Source: a bacterium (GTDB lineage: Bacteria > UBP14 > UBA6098 > B30-G16). From it: a DNA stretch of 14,112 nt. A program made the translations under genes and the position numbers. The stretch is taken from assembly GCA_027007865.1 (NCBI GenBank), contig JALTEE010000004.1, positions 1-14,112 on the forward strand, given 5' to 3'. This document shows, in pieces, positions 684 to 14,112 of the stretch (position 1 is its first letter; each line of letters begins with the position of its first letter). The notes under the pieces were generated by a model. That model was not told the DNA's origin. It did not search any database and saw only the letters and a list, made by a program, of their open reading frames with translations.

Positions 684-838
684 AAGCCGAAAAAACAGCC
701 TCCGCTGCGGAAACAGGTATGCTATCCTCACCAAATAATAACATACACAACATCAATGAACCGAGCACCAAACCAACTCAATAAAATAATCTCTGGGTGG
801 ATACTATGTAGGTAAAGAATCCAGGTTTATCATTTTTT

Positions 839-1021
839 CTGGATTCCCGTTTTCACGGGAATGACAAATGATGTGCGGGAATGACAGGACAAAGTATGAA
901 AACAACAGAACCGCATTCGAGCGACAGCAAGAAGCGACATCGGTGCACGGCGAAGCGTAGAATCACCCGAAGGGTGTCATTCCCAACTCGATTGGGAATC
1001 CAGTTTGTTTTTATCATTTCT
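839..1021 (+). repeat. Composite dispersed intergenic element, copy A
   Basis: The element is ordered as follows: a GGATTCCCG / CGGGAATGAC hairpin (stem 843-849 / 856-862), a GTGCGGGAATGACAGGACA segment, a CATTCGAGCGACAGCAAG block, a small CACCC-GAA-GGGTG hairpin (964-976), and an ATTCCCAA / TTGGGAAT hairpin (979-986 / 992-999). The same blocks occur in the same order, inverted, at 7151-7313. Relative to that copy, A carries about 22 extra bases after the second block. A further partial unit (hairpin at 1028-1047) follows directly. Confidence 0.7.
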
Positions 1022-1089
1022 TTCTGGATTCCTGTTTGCACGGGAATGACAAACGATATGCGGAAATGACAGATTTCGGCTATCGATGA

Positions 1090-1113
1090 AACAAGGGAGC
1101 ATGCTCCCTTGTT
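1090..1113. repeat. Perfect 24-bp palindrome
   Basis: AACAAGGGAGCA (1090-1101) is followed directly by its exact reverse complement (1102-1113). It lies about 290 bp beyond the rodA stop codon. The following bases on either strand are not a convincing U-tract, so a terminator role for the rodA transcript is possible but weak. It could equally be a protein-binding site or a REP-like unit. Confidence 0.6.
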
Positions 1114-1133
1114 GCCTATTATTATTTATAATT

Positions 1134-1204: not shown

Positions 1205-1246
1205 CCCCTCTATTCTCTAACTCCTTTCTCCCCGAGGAGAAAGGAG
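1205..1246 (+). repeat. Hairpin repeat with CTCCTTTCTCC arms, copy 1
   Basis: CTCCTTTCTCC (1221-1231) and GGAGAAAGGAG (1236-1246) are perfect 11-bp arms around CCGA. The 16 bases before them, CCCCTCTATTCTCTAA, are shared with an inverted copy at 5546-5587; over the 42 bases the two copies differ at only two positions. Confidence 0.7.
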
Positions 1247-3638: not shown

Positions 3639-5345
3639 CTATTTTATAAATAGTGCGCGCTTGGTTATTGTCCTGCCATCATTCATTGTCACACGAATAA
3701 GATATATTCCGCTGGAAATAGACTGGTCAGGCGTCCAGATGAATGTGCGGACACCTTTCGTAGGGGCCGCTCTGTATCCATTTTGGGCAGGTTGTGAACC
3801 TGCCCCTACCACTACATTTCCACGCAAATCGTATATCTCGATATCCGTAGGGGTTTGGCGCGCCGAACCCCTACCATAAAAAATCGTGATTTTGCACGAT
3901 GAATTGAACGGATTTGGCTTCACAGATATGTTTAAAATATTTGGTTTCGAGGAATTATCATCATTGTTGATTATTGTCAAACTATCGTGGCATAGGTCGC
4001 ACATTTCGAGAACCGCAGCGGTTACGATTTCAGCGATGGGGAAATCTGTGACTTCCGGCACAGCGCTATAGTAAAGGCTTTCCCACACCGCGGGCGACCA
4101 GTTCGGAGCATTCTGCGGATAATAAAAGGAATATGAGGGCAGAACTTCTCGAACATAGTTGCTATCCGGATTTATCTTAACCCAGAAACCGTTGCGGCTG
4201 TACCCATCGAAAGCCTGATGAATGTTAGGATAATCAGGCATCGTTTGGTTGTGGTCGTTCTGGCTTATGACGAGAATTACTTTAAAATCGCTATGGAAAC
4301 GCGCAATCGAATCGAACCAGAAAACCGCAGTTCTTCGATACCAAAAATCGTGCGCTTCGCTTGGCGTGGCAACTGTATCTGGCCAATTCAATGTGTCGAG
4401 TATATTATTGTTCCAAAGTTCTTGCGTCACGGGAAAAGTATAAAATATACGCAAATTCCAACCTGCTTCGGGAGCGACACCTGCGTAAGTATCGAAAACA
4501 AAATCTTCCAATGTATCGTATGTGCAATCGTTGTTGTAATCCAGTTTTCCCAAACCATTCAATGTAATTCTGCCATCGGTTCTATTGTCGAGAAAGGCTT
4601 TTCCGCGAAATGGGAAAATTATGCCGTCCGGTGTCTCGTATGTGTCAACGAACATTGTGTCCCACGCGAGATTGGAATAATCGAGCAGGCACTCGACAGA
4701 ACCATAGGAGATATATCGAGCGTTTTTATAGTCGTCGTTTGTGAACGACCACAGGTCTGAGCCATCACAGGTCTGGTTTTCGTCGCCACCTGTTCCGCCG
4801 AAGTCGAATATCATTGTCTGGTCGTTTGTGGGGCTTTCGTAATGCACAACAAAACACACTTTCGAAAACATATATCCCCACATTCCCAGTGTCGTCACAG
4901 CGAGGTTTCCGCCGTTCGAATACGCCGCCATCCCGACGACATCATTATTCACGGGAACGAGAAGCGAATCGCCCATCGAACCGCCGGCGACATCATTAAT
5001 ATCCCCACAGGCATAAGCCATCACCGTTGCAACGACCTGCTCCGTAGCGATGCCTCGGCAATCCCACTGACCCGTTGTGCTGTCCGAACCGAGCGATTTC
5101 CCCGGAAGAAGATATCTTATAAAAATTACGCCATAGGGAACGAAAGTTGTATCGATAGAAAGGTCTCCCATTCCGTGTCCACCGGGAATATATACGGCAA
5201 TCGGCGCGCCATCGACATAGCGCGCAATATCGGGAGCAATTACACGCGCAGTCAGATACCCAAACGGATAGGCTATCCTAACTTTGTATGTCTCGAAGCC
5301 AAAGCAAATCCCAAAAAGCAGTGCTATGATAAACATTTTCCGCAT
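3639..5345 (-). CDS. Secreted alpha/beta-hydrolase-like protein with C-terminal sorting domain
   Basis: A 568-aa protein with an N-terminal signal peptide (MRKMFIIALLFGICFGF). The start is fixed by AGGAGG placed 5 nt upstream. The body resembles an alpha/beta hydrolase: VYIPGGHGMG (51-60) fits an oxyanion-hole loop after a beta strand, and GMAAYSNGGNLAV (138-150) fits a nucleophile elbow with Ser143 in A-Y-S-N-G rather than strict GxSxG. FKVILVISQNDHNQTMPD (354-371) fits the strand carrying the acid residue, with His376 or a later His as candidate general base. The Asp-rich stretches may bind metal. KPNPFNSS (476-483) opens a Por/FlgD-Ig-like tail ending SGIYLIRVTMNDGRTITKRALFIK, probably for outer-membrane export or anchoring. 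The tail contains two in-frame palindrome-encoded insertions (about 491-500 and 512-530). The family is not recognised beyond the fold; substrate is unknown. Confidence 0.75.
   Translation of the reverse strand: MRKMFIIALLFGICFGFETYKVRIAYPFGYLTARVIAPDIARYVDGAPIAVYIPGGHGMGDLSIDTTFVPYGVIFIRYLLPGKSLGSDSTTGQWDCRGIATEQVVATVMAYACGDINDVAGGSMGDSLLVPVNNDVVGMAAYSNGGNLAVTTLGMWGYMFSKVCFVVHYESPTNDQTMIFDFGGTGGDENQTCDGSDLWSFTNDDYKNARYISYGSVECLLDYSNLAWDTMFVDTYETPDGIIFPFRGKAFLDNRTDGRITLNGLGKLDYNNDCTYDTLEDFVFDTYAGVAPEAGWNLRIFYTFPVTQELWNNNILDTLNWPDTVATPSEAHDFWYRRTAVFWFDSIARFHSDFKVILVISQNDHNQTMPDYPNIHQAFDGYSRNGFWVKINPDSNYVREVLPSYSFYYPQNAPNWSPAVWESLYYSAVPEVTDFPIAEIVTAAVLEMCDLCHDSLTIINNDDNSSKPNILNISVKPNPFNSSCKITIFYGRGSARQTPTDIEIYDLRGNVVVGAGSQPAQNGYRAAPTKGVRTFIWTPDQSISSGIYLIRVTMNDGRTITKRALFIK
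3760..3809 (-). repeat. In-frame palindromic element 1 in the hydrolase tail
   Basis: GTAGGGGC (3760-3767) and GCCCCTAC (3802-3809) are perfect 8-bp ends. A second perfect stem, GGGCAGGTT / AACCTGCCC with a 3-nt loop (3785-3805), overlaps the right end. The element is read through in frame as about 17 residues (VGAGSQPAQNGYRAAPT) placed in a loop between two predicted strands of the sorting domain. A near copy lies at 5763-5812. Confidence 0.75.
3847..3874 (-). repeat. In-frame palindromic element 2 in the hydrolase tail
   Basis: GTAGGGGTT (3847-3855) pairs with AACCCCTAC (3866-3874). The centre GGCGCGCC (3857-3864) is self-complementary, and T3856 faces G3865. The 28 bases encode GRGSARQTPT between two strands of the sorting domain. 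The GTAGGGG/CCCCTAC ends are shared with element 1. Confidence 0.75.
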
Positions 5346-5500: not shown

Positions 5501-5587
5501 GTCCCGACAGGGCGGGACACCTTCTCCCAAAGAGAGAAGGGAATCCTCCTTTCTCCTTGGGGAGAAAGGAGTTAGAGGATAGAGGGG
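5501..5587. repeat. Array of three hairpins, including copy 2 of the CTCCTTTCTCC repeat
   Basis: Three stem-loops follow one another: GTCCCG / CGGGAC (5501-5506 / 5513-5518), CCTTCTC / GAGAAGG (5520-5526 / 5534-5540) and CTCCTTTCTCC / GGAGAAAGGAG (5546-5556 / 5561-5571). The last one with its flank (5546-5587) is an inverted copy of 1205-1246. The array fills the gap between the pseudogene and the hydrolase gene; no gene is seen in 5346-5641. Confidence 0.65.
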
Positions 5588-5643: not shown

Positions 5644-6042
5644 ATTTCAGATAGAATATTCGCTTCATTACATTTTTCTCGTCTCCAATTTTTACTCGCA
5701 CAAGATATATCCCGGATAAAACCGATTGGTCAGGCGTCCAGATGAATGTGCGGACACCTTTCGTAGGAGCCGCTCTGTATCCATTTTGGGCATGTTGTGA
5801 ACCTGCTCCTACCACTACATTTCCACGCAAATCGTATATCTCGATATCCGTAGGGGTTTGGTGCGCCAATTCTCATTCGACAAAAAAGAATTTATTCTAT
5901 CGAACGATGTGCATTGCGGCGATGCAAAATTGTTTATCTGTGGAGACCACCTCGAGCATTGCTCTTTCAACACATCGAGCCGACTGCCGAAAAGCACCGA
6001 AGATAGAATTAAAATCGAAACGATAAAAAATTTCTTTCTCAT
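5642..6042 (-). pseudogene. Collapsed secreted-protein gene: signal peptide joined out of frame to a sorting tail
   Basis: An ATG at 6042, with GTGAGGGA just upstream, opens a good signal peptide (MRKKFFIVSILILSSVLFGS) and a short mature stretch with two Cys (RLDVLKEQCSRW...). This frame then enters the palindrome region and stops at 5815. The sorting tail (DIEIYDLRGNVVV...FIWTPDQSVLSGIYLVRVKIGDEKNVMKRIFYLK) is in another frame, closed upstream by a TGA at 5875-5873. The frames can therefore meet only within about 5868-5875, which is also where similarity to the intact hydrolase tail begins. The body of the protein and the left arm of palindrome element 2 are missing. It starts 7 bp after the lipoprotein stop, so it would be the second gene of that operon. 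A functional short peptide from the first frame is possible but unlikely. Confidence 0.65.
5763..5812 (-). repeat. Palindromic element 1, second copy, in the pseudogene tail
   Basis: GTAGGAGC (5763-5770) and GCTCCTAC (5805-5812) pair perfectly. Compared with 3760-3809 one base in each arm has changed so that a G-C pair becomes A-T. The inner stem carries further changes (GGGCATGTT / AACCTGCTC) and is weaker. It lies in a 141-bp near-identical block (5727-5867 against 3724-3864). Confidence 0.7.
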
Positions 6043-7150: not shown

Positions 7151-7313
7151 AAATGATAAAAAACAAACTGGATTCCAAACCGAGTTGGGAATGACACCCT
7201 TCGGGTGATTCAGGGCTTCACCATCTATCAAGGTCGCTCCTTGTTGTCGCTCGAATACTGTCCTGTCATTCCCGCACTTTGTCTTGTCATTCCCGTGAAA
7301 ACGGGAATCCAGC
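7151..7313 (-). repeat. Composite dispersed intergenic element, copy B (inverted)
   Basis: Read on the minus strand this has the same order as 839-1021: GGATTCCCG hairpin, GTGCGGGAATGACAGGACA, a TTCGAGCGACAACAAGGAGCG block, GAATCACCCGAAGGGTG, TCATTCCCAACTC hairpin, then CAGTTTGTTTTTTATCATTT. It ends about 40 bp before the lipoprotein start codon and so lies in its upstream region. With the terminator and a 16-nt direct repeat AGCGTTCCGCTT(G/A)ACC (7315-7330, 7359-7374) it fills the gene-free stretch 7109-7518. Confidence 0.7.
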
Positions 7314-7460
7314 AAGCGTTCCGCTTGACCATTCGCCCGTCATACACCCTGCTCCCATAGCGTTCCGCTTAACCGTCCACGCTTCGATATTGCGTGCAAA
7401 TTTGAATTTTTCAATTAAAATTATAAAAATCTCAATAAAATCCACGGCAAATAAATATTT

Positions 7461-7518: not shown

Positions 7519-10500
7519 TTATCTCACCAGCAGCGCTTTTGTAACTGCGGCGCCATTCGGAGTATCGATTCTGATGATATATAGTCCGGTCGCTGCGGGT
7601 TCTCCATCGTCGGTTTCGGCATTCCATTCAAGCGAATGAGTTCCAACAGAAAGTTCTCCGGAGAATAGATTACGCACAAGTTTCCCGCTGTAATCGTATA
7701 TTTTCAGAGATGCGTTTCCGTTCTGCGGCATCTGCACCGTGATTTCCGTCGAACTGTTAAACGGCGTCGGCGAAGTTTTTAGTGCCAATTTATCTGGTAT
7801 TGATGCCATTTCTGCAGATGGCGGAGGTGGAGGATTGCCAGTCGCATAACCATTCGATGAATACCCTCGCCCAAATCCTGCATAACTTTCATCGACAATG
7901 AGAGAACAATCACCCGATAAAAATGCCCAATAACCCATTCCCGATTCGAGTTCGGCCGTGCTCGAATATGAATCCCCGTCAAATGAATACACGGGCGGAA
8001 TAAATAATCCATCGGGTGAAGTCGTAATGAGAGTGGTCGAGACTTCCTCCGAAGATGCGGGCGCTGCGATAATATTCCATCCCGCAGAACAAGAAATCGT
8101 GTATGAAAGCATCGGAGTGCCTGTAATGGTAACATCCATTTCGCCGATTGATAGTATCCAGTATCCGCGCCCCATATCGAGTTCGTCTGCGGCAAAATAA
8201 GACGATGTTGCAGGGTCGTATCCGAATGCTTCGATTGCCGTGGGGAACAACTGTCTCCAATCGGTTATATATGGCTGGACAGGCAACGAAATCATATTCC
8301 AGCCATTTTCGAGATGAATTGTGAATGAAATATCGTCGTCATCCGCCGGGTCGTTCGGGTCGGATTCGAGCATAACTTCTTCTCCATCTGACAATCCGCC
8401 ACCATCGGTATCGTAATTGTGCGGGTCTGTGTTGTGTTGATATTCTTCGAGGTTGGATAGTCCATCGTCGTCGTTGTCCATATTTGCCAAGCCACGAATC
8501 GTATCCGAGCCAAAGAAATAATTTTCCCAATCGTCTGGGAGTCTGTCGCCATCAGCATCGGCATCTGAATTCGGGTCGAGTTCGGGCGATGCGATTTCTG
8601 CAAGGTCGGGAACGCCATCGCCATCGGTATCCGAACTGCGAGGATTAGTTCCCGCAAGATATTCATTTCGATTTGTGATAAGGTCTCCATCGTCATCGCC
8701 GTCGGGTGCGCAAGAATCTATGCTGCCAAAGAAATATTCTTCCCACCAGTCGGGAATACCATCGCCATCGCTGTCTGCAATATCATAGAAAGCGACACTT
8801 TCCGAATCGGGAGAACTATAATTGAGCGCAGAATCAACAGCGATTATCGAAACATAATAATCTCCGCCGACAATCAGATTTTCAAATGTATATTCGGTCG
8901 AATCCGCTGGCAGTTGCGTGCTGTATGTGATTTCGCCCGGCGCTGTTCCTACCGTGAGAACATACGAATACACATCGGCATCGCCGTTCCACGAAACGAG
9001 AAGCATTTTGTCCGCAAGATTTGGGATAACCGATGTTATTTCGACAAACGGCGGAATCGTATCCCGTTCCGCAGGGTCGCTTCCAAATGGCGTTACAACA
9101 GTAATTTCACTTTCATTACCAGCATTATCATAAGCGGAAACTCCGAAAACAAAATCGAGCGTATCGGGAACCATCACTTTCGCATTATCGAAAGCATAAT
9201 AGTTCACATCGGCGACATCGATTGTTTCCCACCAATCTATGTGGTCAGATTGCTGCCAGCCTTTGTGAACTTTGTATCCCACGACATCGCGTTCGGGATT
9301 ATACTGCCAAGTTATGCGAACAGTCTCATCGTTCACCCACGACGCCAACGCTCCCGTCGGCGCAGATGGCGCAACATCGTCTTCGGGGAAAGAAATCACA
9401 TCCACAGAATCGACAAGGGAAGCAAATCGGTTGTTCTGGTCTTCGGCGTAAGCAACGAGATAGTAGTTTCCTTCCTGAAAACCGAGTTCGTCGAAATTAT
9501 AAGTTCTATCTATCGAAAAATCATCTGTCAGCGTAATTTTGTCTATCGGCATTGCTCCTGCGGTGATGTCCATCGGCTTTAGCATCAGAGTTACCACAAC
9601 CGTATCGCCTGCTTGCGCTCCGCTTATATCGCCCGATATATCGAAACCACTGCCAGTAGAAGTTGTCGATAGTCCAAGTCCGAGCGCATTTCGGAAACTC
9701 TTTACCTGAACGAGATGGTCGCTGTCACCTGCGGGAAGGTCGTTTATATGCGCTGTCCAAATACCAGCATCGCTCCGCTTTATCATCATCCCTTGATAAT
9801 AGTCGCCATCGTAATATCCATCGAACCTGACTAACTCCGCATCTTCGCTATACGAGCAGGAATCGAGCGTGATTGTGTGTCCTTCGGGTGTTTCCACGGA
9901 GAAGGATGGATGAACATCTTCGTTTGTGCGAAGGATAAACATTTTCATATCATCGTCGTTCATATCATAACTCAGGTCTTCGGACACGAGAGAACTCTTA
10001 CAGTAGAATGTTCGCAACATATCGAGCGGGGTATATGCTCTTGCTTCCGACATCAACGATAGGCTTCCATCGATGTATGCGATACTGGGTCGCAGTCCGA
10101 AGAAGTTGAGATACGCTTCTCCTTTGACACCCCAGTGTCCGCCGGAGTCGCCGCCGTGTTTAAATTCGCCAAAATACAGGTCGCCATCGACTTCGATGTC
10201 GTGAGTTGGAAATAGCCAGGCTATAGCGTGATGGTCGATGTGCACTTCTACACCTGCATCACCAGTGAAGTGGAAATCGCCCACGGGTTCGCGCCACATT
10301 GAAAGTTCAGTTCCGCCCTGTGCCCAAATATGGCTGCTGAAGGTGGTTCTCAAATTAGCGTATCCTGTAAGTGCCCAACCACCGCCGCCATAGTTCCACT
10401 GATACCGAAGTCCAGCCTCACCTCTTGCGAGATGTTCGAGAAAACGAACAGCGCCTTCCAGACCAAATTCATCGTGTTCAAAATCTATCCAAACACTCGG

Positions 10501-13500
10501 TTCCATTCTGACCACAGAACCGAAATAAGGCACCGATGGACCGCCTGTAAGTTGGCAACCGAATTGTATATATATATTGGATGGGTCTGTAATGTGTCGG
10601 ACTTCACCATTTACACCCGTTAAGAAAAATCCTGTCGCACCGAGAGGCACTCCCGGACTCCAGCCCATAAACTCCAGTCTAACATCGTCGAGACCGACAT
10701 CGCGAATAATCGTTACATAAGCGCCGATATATGTATCGCTTCCGAGTCCCGACATAAGCCCCGAAATCTCGAACCTGCCACCGCCAGAGAAGCGTGTTAT
10801 CACACCATCTTCCCACACGAGACGCAATTTGGCGCGCCGAATGCCGACCGTTCGTCCTCCTGCGGGAAATACAAAATCGGGGAAGGTTATGGCGAGGTCG
10901 AGGTCTATCAATTTACCATCGTAAATCGCCAGAGAATGCGCATCTATCTGGAAATAACCGCCATCTATAAAACTCGTCGATGGTATTAATGATGAATTAA
11001 CTTTCATATAGATTCTACCAGCATAAATCGTATCTCCGCTGACATATACATCCTGAAATTTGAATCTAAACGCATTATCCCAAAGACCGATTTCAAATTC
11101 ATCGACATAATATTCCACAGTTCCATCGTAGTAGCTCCTCCTGTAAATTCCAATTGAGCCGATGAAATTTGCGCCGTTATTTATAGAGATGTCCCCGCTT
11201 ATTTGCCACCATCCTTCATCAACATTTATTTCTGCGGGGTCGAGCGAAGCGGTATATGAAAATGGCGCTCCCATAAGCGAATCCGGTGTGATTTTATCGA
11301 GTATCGAATCGGGAAGCATAGATGTGCTCGGGTCAAATCGGAAGCGAATGCCATCGTAGGTCAGGTCGAATGCTCCACCATATACATAGGGTTTCGAGCC
11401 ATCCTCGTGAGCAAAGCGCGCAAGACCTGTTCCTGCTTCGAGGTCGAGGTCGATGTATGCGCCGACATCGCCTATCGAACTAATATATGCAATCGTATCC
11501 CCTGAAGCATTCACCAAACGGATGTTTCCATATACTCTATCTTCGGTTACATTGTCGGAGCAAATCTGGAACGAGCCATAATCGATGCAGGTCATTGCCG
11601 TCCAGGTGTATCCCGCGAGCGGAATCGTATATTCCCCGACTTCCGTCTGAACTATCAATGTGCCAGCATACGCGGAAGAACTGCTATATGGGCAGAACTG
11701 AATCGTTATATATTTCCATTCGTCGGGGTCCACGGTAAAAGTATCGTGTCCTGTAATTGAAAACGCGCCGGAACCAACGAGCGTCATCGATGTTATAGCA
11801 ATCGGCACATCGCCGTTATTTCGCACAGTGATGCGCTTTGTATTGCAATCGTCCATTGCAACACTATCAAAAACGAGCGAGTGAGGAGTTAGCGAAAGCG
11901 CCGATGCCGGCGTTATCACGCCGCTGCCATATAGCCAAACGGGAACGGTAGGATTATGTGTGTCGTTTGTGAACAGTGTCATTATTCCCGAATCCGCTTC
12001 GGCAGCGGTAGGACAATATTGCACGGTAATCGAATCCCATTCCCCCACTTCGATTGTCATCGGCAGAGAAGACGATATCGAGAAATTCGCATTGTCAAAA
12101 TTAACGCTGTCGATTGTGAGTTCCGCAGCACCTGTATTTCCAATACCGAGATATTGCGGTCCGCATCCTCCAACAGATACTTCGCCGAATTCGAGCGCAC
12201 CCGTAGATGCCCTGAATTCCGGACCTGCGGGTTCGTTCACCCAAATCGTTGTCGTTGCGGTATCGACATCGCCGCAAGGGTCATCGACGATTAGGGATAC
12301 CGTGTAATTCCCAACTTCTGTAAATATGTGTTCCACGCTCACATTGGACGATGAGTCTCCATCGCCAAAATACCACATACGCGACGAGACATATCCTTGC
12401 GAACTATCGACAAAAGTAACCGTCATCGGAGCGGTTCCATACATTTCAGATGCCGAAATTCGAGCGGATAGTTCGGGACAGGAAACCGTTATAACAGCGG
12501 TATCGGTTTGCGATGTGCAGAAATTGGAAACCGTGAGTGTGGCATAATAAGTTCCGGGTTCGGAATAAGTGTGAGCGATTGAATCTGTGGATGAAGTATC
12601 GCCGTCGCCAAAATTCATAAAAGCGCTTTCTATTAGCCCTGTGCTGTTATTTCGAAAGATGACTTCGAGTGGTGCGGTTCCCGATGTTGGGACAGCGGAG
12701 AGGTTCGCTGTAAGGTCTTCGCAACAGTTTTTATCGAACAAAACATCGTGGTCACTTTCTGTGAAACGATTTTCCCAAACGATTGCGGGACACCCGCCGG
12801 GCGCTTCATTGGAAACAGCGATTGCAGGAAATGTTTCCTGCGCTGTCGCTTCATCCGATACATCGGACGATGTGCCCCAATATCCGTCGAACGGGCGGGA
12901 AACCATCACTACCTTTCCCTGCTCCCAATATGATACGAGAAAAGCATTATCGCTGCTTACAATATCTGCATATTTTTCGTTTCTGAATGTAAGTGCAACG
13001 AACTCGCTTCCCCAATTTATACCGCCATCGGTAGAAATTGCGCTATAGATATCGTGGTCGCTATCGGAATATTTATATGTATAAACAATTGCGGCATTTT
13101 CACCATCGGCAGCAATACGAGGATACGCTCCCGAAGAAGCGACAGTCGAGCCATCGCTCCATGTAACGCCATAATCGCTGCTGCGTGATGCCCAGATAGA
13201 ACTTTCTTCGCCATCGCCTGTTTGAGTTGTAATCACAAGCCCACCTAATTGAGTATATGCAATATCGCAATAACCTGCGCCCTCGCTGGTGAAATCGATG
13301 AGCGACCAGGTGAGCCCGAAATCCGTCGAGCGGGCAAGATGAACATCGGTGCCCCAAATATTGCTGCGGATATAGGCGACATATACATAATAATACGAAT
13401 CGGTATCTGTGATAATCCGTGCATTAGATTTTCCGGTGAAGGATGAACCATCGATTGAATGGATTTCCCCACCGGCGCCGGTAAAAGAAAATCTCGCAAC

Positions 13501-14076
13501 CTGAACATCGTTGCTGGATGTATGGCAACTGAGGAAAACCCAATTCTGTTCACCTTCGCCGATGGCGATTTGCGGATAATTAAGGTCATAGGAATCGTTT
13601 GTTATTTGGATTAGAGGTGTCCAGGTTTCTCCGCCATCTGTGGATTTTACGACGGCAATATATTTATGGGAATGCTCACTGTCGCTCATCTTAAATGCAA
13701 CGAATATTGCGCCGTCCGATGATGTAGCTATCGCAGGTTTACCTTCAAAATTGCCGCTTGACGCAACATATATATCGCTGCCAAATGATTTTTCAGAAGC
13801 GCGCTCGGGAAGAGCTCGAAGAGGATAGATATGGCTTTCGCAATCGACGCTCACACCAGCAGAAATTCCAGCCATCTCATCTATTCGCTGCTGAATCGAA
13901 ATGACCGAAGCAGCATCGCCGGAATGCTTTGCCGTCGAAAGTTGTTCTATCAGGTCTCCACCAGTAAATGAATTTTCGGCAAGCGAAAATCCCGGCTGAA
14001 GATTTAACACGCCTGCATTGCTCGATGAAATAATAAGCACACACAGCACAAAAAACAACAGTGATTTCTTAAACAT
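7519..14076 (-). CDS. Giant secreted multidomain protein (2185 aa) with C-terminal sorting domain
   Basis: The ATG at 14076 is chosen because GGGAGG sits 6 nt upstream; the frame extends 8 codons to a TTG but those codons contain the RBS itself. Domains by residue: signal peptide (1-21, ...SSSNA); a sialidase-like beta-propeller with four Asp-box motifs (STDGGETW 145, STDFGLTW 250, SSDYGVTW 299, STDGGINW 348); two PKD domains (about 455-532 and 536-614, FGDGDTSS and FGDGDSSS); two HYDIN/choice-of-anchor-D-like domains (620-719, 725-824); an unrecognised beta-rich region (829-1352); an uncharacterised stretch (1358-1562); two Fn3-like domains (1569-1662, 1674-1764); thrombospondin-3-like Ca-binding repeats (1767-1915, DSDGDGIPDWW, DTDGDGVPD); a duplicated GWNMISLP / GWNIIAAP module (1924-2062); a proline linker; and a FlgD-Ig/Por-type tail (2100-2185, KIYDYSGKLVRNL...GLYIIRI). 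No sialidase active-site set was recognised; a surface adhesin or structural role is inferred. Confidence 0.85.
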   Translation of the reverse strand: MFKKSLLFFVLCVLIISSSNAGVLNLQPGFSLAENSFTGGDLIEQLSTAKHSGDAASVISIQQRIDEMAGISAGVSVDCESHIYPLRALPERASEKSFGSDIYVASSGNFEGKPAIATSSDGAIFVAFKMSDSEHSHKYIAVVKSTDGGETWTPLIQITNDSYDLNYPQIAIGEGEQNWVFLSCHTSSNDVQVARFSFTGAGGEIHSIDGSSFTGKSNARIITDTDSYYYVYVAYIRSNIWGTDVHLARSTDFGLTWSLIDFTSEGAGYCDIAYTQLGGLVITTQTGDGEESSIWASRSSDYGVTWSDGSTVASSGAYPRIAADGENAAIVYTYKYSDSDHDIYSAISTDGGINWGSEFVALTFRNEKYADIVSSDNAFLVSYWEQGKVVMVSRPFDGYWGTSSDVSDEATAQETFPAIAVSNEAPGGCPAIVWENRFTESDHDVLFDKNCCEDLTANLSAVPTSGTAPLEVIFRNNSTGLIESAFMNFGDGDTSSTDSIAHTYSEPGTYYATLTVSNFCTSQTDTAVITVSCPELSARISASEMYGTAPMTVTFVDSSQGYVSSRMWYFGDGDSSSNVSVEHIFTEVGNYTVSLIVDDPCGDVDTATTTIWVNEPAGPEFRASTGALEFGEVSVGGCGPQYLGIGNTGAAELTIDSVNFDNANFSISSSLPMTIEVGEWDSITVQYCPTAAEADSGIMTLFTNDTHNPTVPVWLYGSGVITPASALSLTPHSLVFDSVAMDDCNTKRITVRNNGDVPIAITSMTLVGSGAFSITGHDTFTVDPDEWKYITIQFCPYSSSSAYAGTLIVQTEVGEYTIPLAGYTWTAMTCIDYGSFQICSDNVTEDRVYGNIRLVNASGDTIAYISSIGDVGAYIDLDLEAGTGLARFAHEDGSKPYVYGGAFDLTYDGIRFRFDPSTSMLPDSILDKITPDSLMGAPFSYTASLDPAEINVDEGWWQISGDISINNGANFIGSIGIYRRSYYDGTVEYYVDEFEIGLWDNAFRFKFQDVYVSGDTIYAGRIYMKVNSSLIPSTSFIDGGYFQIDAHSLAIYDGKLIDLDLAITFPDFVFPAGGRTVGIRRAKLRLVWEDGVITRFSGGGRFEISGLMSGLGSDTYIGAYVTIIRDVGLDDVRLEFMGWSPGVPLGATGFFLTGVNGEVRHITDPSNIYIQFGCQLTGGPSVPYFGSVVRMEPSVWIDFEHDEFGLEGAVRFLEHLARGEAGLRYQWNYGGGGWALTGYANLRTTFSSHIWAQGGTELSMWREPVGDFHFTGDAGVEVHIDHHAIAWLFPTHDIEVDGDLYFGEFKHGGDSGGHWGVKGEAYLNFFGLRPSIAYIDGSLSLMSEARAYTPLDMLRTFYCKSSLVSEDLSYDMNDDDMKMFILRTNEDVHPSFSVETPEGHTITLDSCSYSEDAELVRFDGYYDGDYYQGMMIKRSDAGIWTAHINDLPAGDSDHLVQVKSFRNALGLGLSTTSTGSGFDISGDISGAQAGDTVVVTLMLKPMDITAGAMPIDKITLTDDFSIDRTYNFDELGFQEGNYYLVAYAEDQNNRFASLVDSVDVISFPEDDVAPSAPTGALASWVNDETVRITWQYNPERDVVGYKVHKGWQQSDHIDWWETIDVADVNYYAFDNAKVMVPDTLDFVFGVSAYDNAGNESEITVVTPFGSDPAERDTIPPFVEITSVIPNLADKMLLVSWNGDADVYSYVLTVGTAPGEITYSTQLPADSTEYTFENLIVGGDYYVSIIAVDSALNYSSPDSESVAFYDIADSDGDGIPDWWEEYFFGSIDSCAPDGDDDGDLITNRNEYLAGTNPRSSDTDGDGVPDLAEIASPELDPNSDADADGDRLPDDWENYFFGSDTIRGLANMDNDDDGLSNLEEYQHNTDPHNYDTDGGGLSDGEEVMLESDPNDPADDDDISFTIHLENGWNMISLPVQPYITDWRQLFPTAIEAFGYDPATSSYFAADELDMGRGYWILSIGEMDVTITGTPMLSYTISCSAGWNIIAAPASSEEVSTTLITTSPDGLFIPPVYSFDGDSYSSTAELESGMGYWAFLSGDCSLIVDESYAGFGRGYSSNGYATGNPPPPPSAEMASIPDKLALKTSPTPFNSSTEITVQMPQNGNASLKIYDYSGKLVRNLFSGELSVGTHSLEWNAETDDGEPAATGLYIIRIDTPNGAAVTKALLVR

Positions 14077-14112
14077 ATTTTTCCTCCCGATTTTTTTCAA
14101 ATGCTAATACAG

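What the first reader, a model, noticed from the sequence alone, without database searches (positions are those of the whole stretch)
3760..3874. Palindromic elements inserted in frame within a protein sorting domain
Two palindromes with the same GTAGGGG / CCCCTAC ends (3760-3809 and 3847-3874) lie inside the coding sequence of the hydrolase tail. They are read through without stop and add about 10 and 17 residues in loops between predicted beta strands; compared with the tail of the giant protein the extra residues fall exactly there. This resembles the coding palindromic elements (RPE) known from Rickettsia, but in an FCB-like secretion tail. It suggests a mobile hairpin family that spreads into coding DNA at permissive loops and makes new peptide segments.
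Basis: partly seen in the sequence, partly recalled or inferred. Interest (0 to 1): 0.75.

Follow-up and report, generated by a model that had tools for sequence, protein, structure and literature searches.

The report
Mobile DNA hairpins inside secretion tails
Short hairpin-forming DNA repeats, of the kind normally found between bacterial genes, sit in frame inside two loops of the export tails of many secreted proteins in an uncultured bacterial group, which makes these tails an unusual home for mobile DNA that adds new peptide pieces to proteins.

Summary
Both palindromes (3847-3874, 28 bp; 3760-3809, a degenerate two-hairpin element) are read in frame in the type IX secretion (T9SS) C-terminal sorting domain of the hydrolase; a structure model puts both between beta strands, and the closest orthologue lacks both. 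Of 35 paralogous tails parsed in this genome, 21 carry in loop 1 an insert of one of five palindrome families and 27 a repeat-derived insert in loop 2 (six kinds, one of them not detectably palindromic). All 73 GTAGGGG...CCCCTAC palindromes in the 17 genomes held for the phylum were read: 32 by rule (36 by eye) lie in frame in these same two tail loops, in 9 genomes, although tails are only about 1.5% of the DNA. The few orthologue pairs compared carry different elements or none. The likeliest reading is that REP/REPIN-type mobile palindromes colonise two permissive loops of a domain that is probably cut off after export, and then spread among about 100 paralogous tails, probably helped by recombination. 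Family B also lies inside a REP-transposase-like (Y1) domain embedded in a DNA methylase, a candidate mobiliser. It works like Rickettsia RPEs but is not one. New variant of a known kind.

The parts
3639..5345 (-).
   Evidence: TIGR04183 28.0 bits (cut-off 23) at residues 477-562; PF18962 23.8 bits, below its cut-off of 27
3642..3950 (-). T9SS type A C-terminal sorting domain (tail) with two insert-bearing loops
   Evidence: best PDB fold matches are T9SS-bound CTD chains 8gl6_D and 8gl8_D (E 5.6e-4 and 6.2e-4)
3847..3874 (-). loop-1 insert, family A palindrome GTAGGGGTTCGGCGCGCCAAACCCCTAC (coding strand), encodes GRGSARQTPT
3760..3809 (-). loop-2 insert, GTAG...CTAC two-hairpin element with a decayed second half, encodes VGAGSQPAQNGYRAAPT; perfect hairpin at 3785-3805
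   Evidence: residues 62-69 of the model have pLDDT < 50
5645..5875 (-). truncated second tail copy, 91% identical to the first over 180 nt, with its own copy of the dimer (5763-5812) and half of palindrome A (5850-5869)
1088..1115 (.). intergenic copy of family B (AACAAGGGAGCATGCTCCCTTGTT core), the family that fills loop 1 of seven other tails
836..867 (.). copy outside tails of family C (TCATTCCCGTGAAAACGGGAATCCAGA), which fills loop 1 of other tails; further copies about 1020-1052 and 7284-7316
1221..1246 (.). copy outside tails of the CTCCTTTCTCC family found in loop 2 of L031; second copy 5546-5571
7314..7386. two copies of the AGCGTTCCGCTTGACC repeat found (reverse complement) in loop 2 of L028, L033 and L035; not palindromic by the test

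Best explanation
The two palindromes are REP/REPIN-like mobile palindromic elements that entered, in frame, two loops between beta strands of a T9SS C-terminal sorting domain. The same two loops in the roughly 100 paralogous tails of this genome, and in tails of other genomes of the phylum, are the main coding niche of such elements. Step 1 (shown): unrelated palindrome families occupy the same loops in frame, several also occur outside tails, and the orthologues compared lack them or carry others. Step 2 (inferred): loops between strands tolerate ten or more extra residues, and the tail is likely cut off by the T9SS sortase after export, so inserts cost little. Step 3 (weakly supported): once one tail has an insert, recombination among similar tail genes copies it to others and swaps stems at a fixed site. 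Step 4 (inferred): the mobiliser is a Y1/RAYT-type transposase; for family B a Y1 domain embedded in an Eco57I-like methylase, containing and bordered by family-B palindromes, is the candidate.
For: In-frame palindromes between strands of a CTD fold. Five loop-1 families and six kinds of loop-2 insert in 35 tails, 17 loop-1/loop-2 combinations counting empty loops. Family B lies in loop 1 of seven tails (frame NKGACSLVD), in loop 2 of L020 in another frame (EQGSMLPRSQ), and outside tails. Census of all 73 GTAG palindromes in 17 genomes: 32 by rule, 36 by eye, in these two loops, about 30 times the share expected from tail length. Orthologues: P0122 without either insert; L028 vs L156, L026 vs L135, L016 vs L100 with other or no inserts. 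SprA in 14 of 17 genomes including this one. Methylase site found empty (P0008), with a family-B peptide only (P0011), and with a Y1 domain plus family B (G000:C236).
Against: No insertion event was observed; the genomes are fragmented assemblies. The orthologue tails differ throughout, so no exact empty site with clean borders was found at nucleotide level. The recombination evidence is weak: its identity measure gives about 0.67 for unrelated gene bodies, and L010 does not show the effect. No GTAG palindrome was found near 22 of the 23 Y1 loci (L292 not scanned). Four genomes of the same family (G004-G007) have no GTAG palindrome, and of 12 of their tails parsed only L109 loop 2 and, weakly, L118 loop 1 look palindromic. 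Net length gain over P0122 is only 5 residues in loop 1, less than the 28 nt of the palindrome.
Confidence: 0.7

Rival explanations
1. Almost no transposition into loops: a few ancient insertions were spread and reshuffled only by recombination (gene conversion, tail swapping) among the paralogous tails, and stems were exchanged through the shared GTAGGGG/CCCCTAC ends.
For: Flanks of the six family-B loop-1 copies shown are nearly identical; for L026 the orthologue tail scores 0.59, the best paralogue tail 0.81, the orthologue body 0.79; within G010 and G014 the same or similar flanks hold different stems, and L306 is a hybrid of two stems.
Against: Families without shared ends (B, C, D and the loop-2 kinds N, P, S, L) sit at the same sites, several of them also outside tails; family B sits in both loops in different frames; f1, G010/G013/G014 and G015/G016 have different insertion points in loop 1; one search is a weak measure (unrelated bodies about 0.67).
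Confidence: 0.18
2. Adaptive diversification: the loops are exposed and new peptides there are selected, so that palindromes serve as raw material for variable surface loops.
For: Loop contents vary combinatorially (17 loop-1/loop-2 combinations, empty loops counted, among 35 tails).
Against: If the tail is removed after export (recalled for type A CTDs) the loops are not exposed for long; many inserts keep recognisable palindromes rather than drifting (18 of the 21 loop-1 inserts reach their score in at most 3 of 60 shuffles); copies also lie in broken tails.
Confidence: 0.08
3. Target choice: the mobile elements home on tail DNA (a transposase that recognises the conserved strand-coding sequence or 3' ends of genes), so that enrichment reflects target preference rather than tolerance.
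For: Insertion points are nearly fixed within a genus; REPs are known to lie close to 3' ends of genes (PMC3733652 section 15), and five family-B copies lie within about 220 nt downstream of tail matches (C11, C74, C239, C245, C354).
Against: Two separate loops, two codon phases in loop 1 and several unrelated families; no common target motif was sought systematically.
Confidence: 0.1
4. Native tail sequence that is palindromic for mRNA-structure reasons; no insertion.
For: The copies lie at conserved places in the tail, and REP hairpins are thought to act in RNA (PMC3733652 abstract).
Against: Unrelated sequences at one site, copies outside tails, insert-free paralogues and an insert-free orthologue; no Rfam family reaches its gathering score in the window.
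Confidence: 0.03

Closest known systems
GTAG-tagged REPs and REP dimers/REPINs (Di Nocera et al. 2013, PMC3733652)
   Same: GTAG ends; 28-bp single units and about 50-bp units with GTAG outside on both sides (the paper's head-head dimers); many stem variants; a minority in frame inside ORFs; hetero- and hybrid dimers (abstract, found passages and section 15 read)
   Different: In what I read, published intragenic REPs lie in assorted proteins, many in DNA repair genes; here one domain family and two loops hold 32-36 of 73 copies in a phylum. The 28-mers are palindromic to the last base, so GTAG is paired, whereas the paper calls the tag unpaired. No Y1 gene with nearby GTAG units was found among 22 of 23 loci.
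Rickettsia palindromic elements (RPE)
   Same: Palindromes kept in frame inside proteins, several families (passages in PMC10969869; PMC3733652 section 15)
   Different: RPEs are about 150 bp, in unrelated genes of Rickettsia, and RPE-4/6 correspond to CGTC-tagged repeats; these are 28-54 bp, GTAG-ended or of other families, in one domain family of another lineage.
RAYT / Y1 REP transposases (PF01797)
   Same: Y1 domain with family-B palindromes inside and at its border in G000:C236
   Different: The domain is embedded in frame in an Eco57I-like methylase instead of being a separate gene flanked by REPs; 103 of the 120 listed homologues carry PF01797 with methylase domains (6574 matches in all, only 120 listed). 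One paper search for it showed nothing on it in the 20 of 79 papers listed, judged by title and start of abstract.
T9SS type A C-terminal sorting domain (TIGR04183, PF18962)
   Same: Profile and fold match, SprA present in the genome
   Different: Loops carry repeat-derived inserts; whether the family literature mentions any was searched only.

Membership tests
GTAG REP / REPIN | palindromic unit of 20-40 bp, or a dimer of such units, with GTAG at an end | tested here: met
   73 units GTAGGGG...CCCCTAC in 10 of 17 genomes; reversed control 6
GTAG REP / REPIN | GTAG tag unpaired at one end | tested here: inconclusive
   unpaired within each hairpin of the two-hairpin units (e.g. G014-G016; window 3760-3809), paired with CTAC in the 28-bp units
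GTAG REP / REPIN | multi-copy, mostly extragenic | tested here: inconclusive
   multi-copy yes; 36 of 73 in tail loops, 3 in broken tails, 25 in short or no open frame, 9 in open frames of 150 aa or more not proven to be genes
GTAG REP / REPIN | associated RAYT gene flanked by the same unit | tested here: not met
   no GTAG palindrome in 22 of the 23 Y1 loci (L292 not scanned; up to 1500 bases each side); family B and other families lie in the methylase-embedded Y1 genes
Rickettsia palindromic element | in-frame palindromic insert in a protein, absent from an orthologue | tested here: met
Rickettsia palindromic element | about 150-bp RPE families, or CGTC-tagged RPE-4/6, in Rickettsia | tested here: not met
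   28-54 bp, GTAG ends, other lineage; definitions
T9SS type A CTD | TIGR04183 above cut-off at the C-terminus | tested here: met
   28.0 bits vs 23, residues 477-562; PF18962 23.8 vs 27 not reached
T9SS type A CTD | CTD fold and a T9SS translocon in the genome | tested here: met
   8gl6_D/8gl8_D top fold hits; SprA_N in G000:C435
T9SS type A CTD | export through T9SS and cleavage by the sortase | not testable with these tools
   needs an experiment; PorU was not searched for

The most novel reading that the evidence does not exclude
In a whole phylum, the two variable loops of the T9SS sorting domain are the principal coding niche of REP-type mobile palindromes: a disposable, hundred-copy domain serves as a safe harbour, stems are swapped at fixed sites by recombination, and Y1/RAYT domains hidden inside restriction-type methylases, which carry such palindromes in their own frame, supply the mobility. 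Proteins thereby gain a combinatorial set of repeat-derived loop peptides.
Probability: 0.35. Interest if true: 0.85.

Novelty: new variant of a known kind. Interest (0 to 1): 0.76.

Why it matters
In-frame palindromes (RPEs, intragenic REPs) have been known for years, but as elements scattered over assorted genes. Here one domain family with about 100 copies per genome collects them at two loops in 9 of 17 genomes, so that insertion, tolerance, spread and stem turnover can be counted and dated. It gives a natural experiment on which loops of a CTD tolerate new peptides, a test of the idea that cleaved targeting segments are safe harbours for mobile DNA, and a candidate link between REP mobility and methylase-embedded Y1 domains. 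It also warns annotators that peptides such as VGAIHELPLQ, NKGACSLV and HSRENGNPEG in such tails are repeat-derived.

Tried and rejected
Stand-alone Y1 genes as the source of the tail palindromes: L058 and the other stand-alone loci (open frames about 120-175 aa) show no GTAG or family-B palindrome nearby; one, L289 in G006, has a CCTTCTCCC...GGGAGAAGG hairpin. Not excluded in trans. An orthologue of the hydrolase in the 20 relatives searched: at E <= 1e-20 only G008 and G011 match its body (37 and 32% identity); the better orthologue P0122 came from the protein search. Exact nucleotide empty sites from orthologue pairs: not obtained, because the tails diverge. Rfam: no family at gathering score in the window. 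Naming the organism: the genome scan gives unnamed MAGs (AUK226 and AUK196 contigs agree in number and length with G001 and G003) and records labelled Zixibacteria/Zixiibacteriota; the window's own record is not named. A wider phylum sample: asked for 120 genomes, the phylum search returned the same 17. Binomial P values are not used as probabilities because copies are not independent.

Limits of the counts. The 35 tails were found by similarity to the window tail, which favours insert-bearing ones, and by a regular expression that mis-split two rows (L013, L019), assigned by hand. Families there were assigned by peptide motif. By the shuffle test, 18 of the 21 loop-1 inserts reach their palindrome score in at most 3 of 60 shuffles (L020 15, L043 6, L013 not tested), and 18 of the 27 loop-2 inserts do; the four members of kind S do not, so S is a repeat without detected palindromy, and L019 was not tested. 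Against the labels, two loops called empty (L031, L032) have a short inverted repeat that scores in 0-1 of 60 shuffles. The 73-site census has no tail bias, but its tail-loop rule was written after seeing examples. Of 7 palindromes in 148.5 kb of random contigs one lies in a tail fragment (L184) and one in a 231-aa open frame that may be a gene (L190). The tail share of 1.5% assumes 290 nt per tail. Papers: PMC3733652 was read as outline and abstract, found passages and section 15; PMC10969869 as found passages; all others only as search listings. Seven paper searches were made; judged by titles and starts of abstracts, none listed a report of palindromic repeats inside T9SS sorting domains.

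Full report
What is in the sequence. Two elements with GTAGGGG/CCCCTAC ends lie inside this tail at the stated coordinates. 3847-3874 is a 28-bp palindrome with one mismatched pair. 3760-3809 is a two-hairpin element: GTAG, a perfect hairpin (3785-3805), a spacer and a decayed second hairpin ending in CTAC, i.e. it reads as a head-to-head REP dimer. 0 of 200 shuffles of the window match the 28-mer pattern and the reversed-pattern control finds none in this genome. An AlphaFold model of the tail (63 sequences, mean pLDDT 77, pTM 0.71) puts the 28-mer (residues 36-45) between strands 29-34 and 44-50, its last two residues in the second strand, and the dimer (residues 58-74) between strands 56-58 and 77-82, where residues 62-69 have pLDDT below 50. 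The two best fold matches in the PDB are T9SS CTD chains bound to the translocon (8gl6_D, 8gl8_D).

The same two loops in paralogous tails. The genome has about 100 tails (95 matches to the window tail at E <= 1; 107 to the profile A2 at E <= 0.001). I parsed 35 of them. Loop 1 holds an insert of one of five families in 21 of 35: A GTAGGGGTTTGGCGCGCCAAACCCCTAC (4), B TCAACAAGGGAGCATGCTCCCTTGTTGA (6), C TCATTCCCGTGAAAACGGGAATCCAGA and variants (8), D GTAGAGACGCATGATTATGCGTCTCTAC (1), E TGTAGGGGCATATCGTGATACGCCCTTACA (2); 14 were classed as without, for example ITAPANADVEIYD. Loop 2 holds a repeat-derived insert in 27 of 35, of six kinds: GTAG dimers (12), GTCAACGG dimers (4), P (5), S (4), L (1) and family B (1); 8 are without or other. 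By the shuffle test 18 of the 21 and 18 of the 27 score as palindromes in at most 3 of 60 shuffles; kind S does not. There are 17 loop-1/loop-2 combinations, empty loops counted. The classes were assigned by peptide motif, two rows by hand. Copies of four of these families lie elsewhere in the window, outside tails: B at 1088-1115, C at 836-867, about 1020-1052 and 7284-7316, the CTCCTTTCTCC family (L) at 1221-1246 and 5546-5571, and S at 7314-7386; the broken tail copy has a GTAG dimer at 5763-5812 and half of palindrome A at 5850-5869.

A census without tail bias. The pattern GTAGGGGN{4,40}CCCCTAC occurs 73 times in 10 of 17 genomes, which are all the genomes that the phylum search returns; the reversed pattern occurs 6 times. 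I read every site. An automatic rule places 25 in loop 1 and 7 in loop 2 of tails, in frame. By eye four more belong there (L367, L375, the second site of L345, L344) and three lie in broken tails (L315, L373, L380). The other 34 lie in short or no open frames (25) or in open frames of 150 aa or more that I could not confirm as genes (9: L002, L005, L355, L362, L365, L371, L374, L377 twice). The 32 sites come from nine genomes of two families (G000-G003; G010, G013-G016). Tails make up about 1.5% of these nine genomes if each is taken as 290 nt (1100 tails, 21.6 Mb), so 32 of 72 is about thirty-fold more than expected; copies are not independent, so no probability is claimed. On the other side, seven genomes have no such palindrome, among them four of the same family (G004-G007), and of 12 of their tails parsed only two loops look palindromic (L109, and weakly L118).

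Family B. Twenty of its 21 copies in this genome were read (C79:1999 was not): seven in loop 1 (frame NKGACSLVD), one in loop 2 of L020 in another frame (EQGSMLPRSQ), two in a methylase with an embedded Y1 domain, one near the start of a tail protein in what looks like its signal peptide (MRNAIVNKGACSLVRTIILSLVFLNVGLSYAQ; not tested with a signal-peptide predictor), one in a short uncertain frame (L034), and eight elsewhere, one of them in a decayed tail (L029:273). It occurs once each in G003 and G016 and in none of the other 14 relatives. Two frames in two loops suggest at least two separate entries of this family into tails.

Orthologues. The closest orthologue of the window protein (P0122; 55% identity over 95% of the query) has neither insert: CVIRLWGITREDVLVVFDLRGVVVERFDVGPQTTQVTW against CKITIFYGRGSARQTPTDIEIYDLRGNVVVGAGSQPAQNGYRAAPTKGVRTFIW, five and eleven residues shorter. 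L028 (family C in loop 1) has an orthologue in G003 (84.5% over 291 residues) with the short loop ITAPAGTEIKIFD; L026 (family B) has one in G001 (79% over 351) without B; L016 (family B) has one in G001 (83% over 475) with an A-like stretch that no longer scores as a palindrome. The tails as a whole differ in these pairs, so the exact empty site is not seen.

How copies may spread. The flanks of the six family-B loop-1 copies shown are nearly identical. In identity over aligned columns L026 has 0.79 to its orthologue's body, 0.59 to its tail and 0.81 to the best paralogous tail; L016 (0.70 against 0.81) and L028 (0.71 against 0.82) go the same way, L010 hardly (0.77 against 0.79 with G003). 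This measure gives about 0.67 for unrelated bodies, so it is weak evidence. In G010 and G014 the same or similar flanks enclose different stems, and L306 is a hybrid of two stems. I infer that recombination among tails copies inserts and swaps stems. Insertion points in loop 1 differ between f1, G010/G013/G014 and G015/G016, which points to several separate entries.

Candidate mobiliser. G000 has two PF01797 loci. One is a stand-alone 137-aa gene without palindromes nearby. The other is embedded in an 818-aa open frame cut by the contig end, of Eco57I/N6-methylase type by the Pfam domains of its homologues; it holds two family-B palindromes and a relative, ACAAGGGGTTGCAACCCCTTGT, in frame, one of them at the border to the resumed methylase. 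Large open frames with Y1 domains in G003, G004 (two) and G015, which I read as methylase-like, carry palindromes of other families. Of the 120 homologues listed (6574 found) 103 have PF01797 beside methylase domains, and some sources name them RayT (my count). The same methylase site is empty in P0008, holds only a family-B peptide in P0011 and holds Y1 with family B in G000 (for P0008 and P0011 only the protein was seen). This ties family B to a Y1 domain by position only. For the GTAG units no such link was found in 22 of 23 Y1 loci.

What it works like and what it is. It works like Rickettsia palindromic elements and like intragenic REPs, which are in print (PMC3733652, PMC10969869). It is not an RPE (size, tag and host differ). 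The GTAG units fit REPs by size, ends and dimers, but not by a flanking RAYT, and in the 28-mers the tag is paired. The new part is the concentration at two loops of one exported, multi-copy domain in a phylum. That such tails are cut off after export is recalled knowledge of type A CTDs; SprA is present in 14 of 17 genomes, PorU was not searched. Seven paper searches listed no report of it, judged by titles and starts of abstracts.

Noticed in passing
G000:C236 (L079:1-2454 minus); L291, L293, L294, L295; P0001-P0120: Y1 (REP-type) transposase domains embedded in frame in Eco57I-like DNA methylases, with in-frame palindromes of local families; one methylase site is seen empty, with a palindrome peptide only, or with the Y1 domain.
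   Followed up: partly
window 5645-5875 (minus), 5850-5869: A truncated tail copy 2 kb from the intact one begins near the centre of a copy of palindrome A, as if broken at the hairpin.
   Followed up: no
L306:1501-1528 (G014:C13): A loop-1 palindrome that is a hybrid of two stems (GCGAGG.. on one arm, ..AATTGC on the other) between unchanged GTAGGGG/CCCCTAC ends.
   Followed up: partly
L019:2822-2849 (G000:C77): A family-B palindrome in frame near the start of a 463-aa tail protein, apparently in its signal peptide, another segment that is cut off.
   Followed up: no
L039 (G000:C55), L051 (G000:C402), L043 (G000:C33): Loops or nearby frames with several repeats in a row (CHSHILF repeats; TCATTCC and FPIELGM repeats in loop 1), so that the stretch between the PNPFN motif and the next strand can grow to about 70 residues.
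   Followed up: no
window 7519-14100 (minus): A 2193-aa protein with a choice-of-anchor D match and a second T9SS tail; no palindrome with arms of 10 or more was found in that tail.
   Followed up: no
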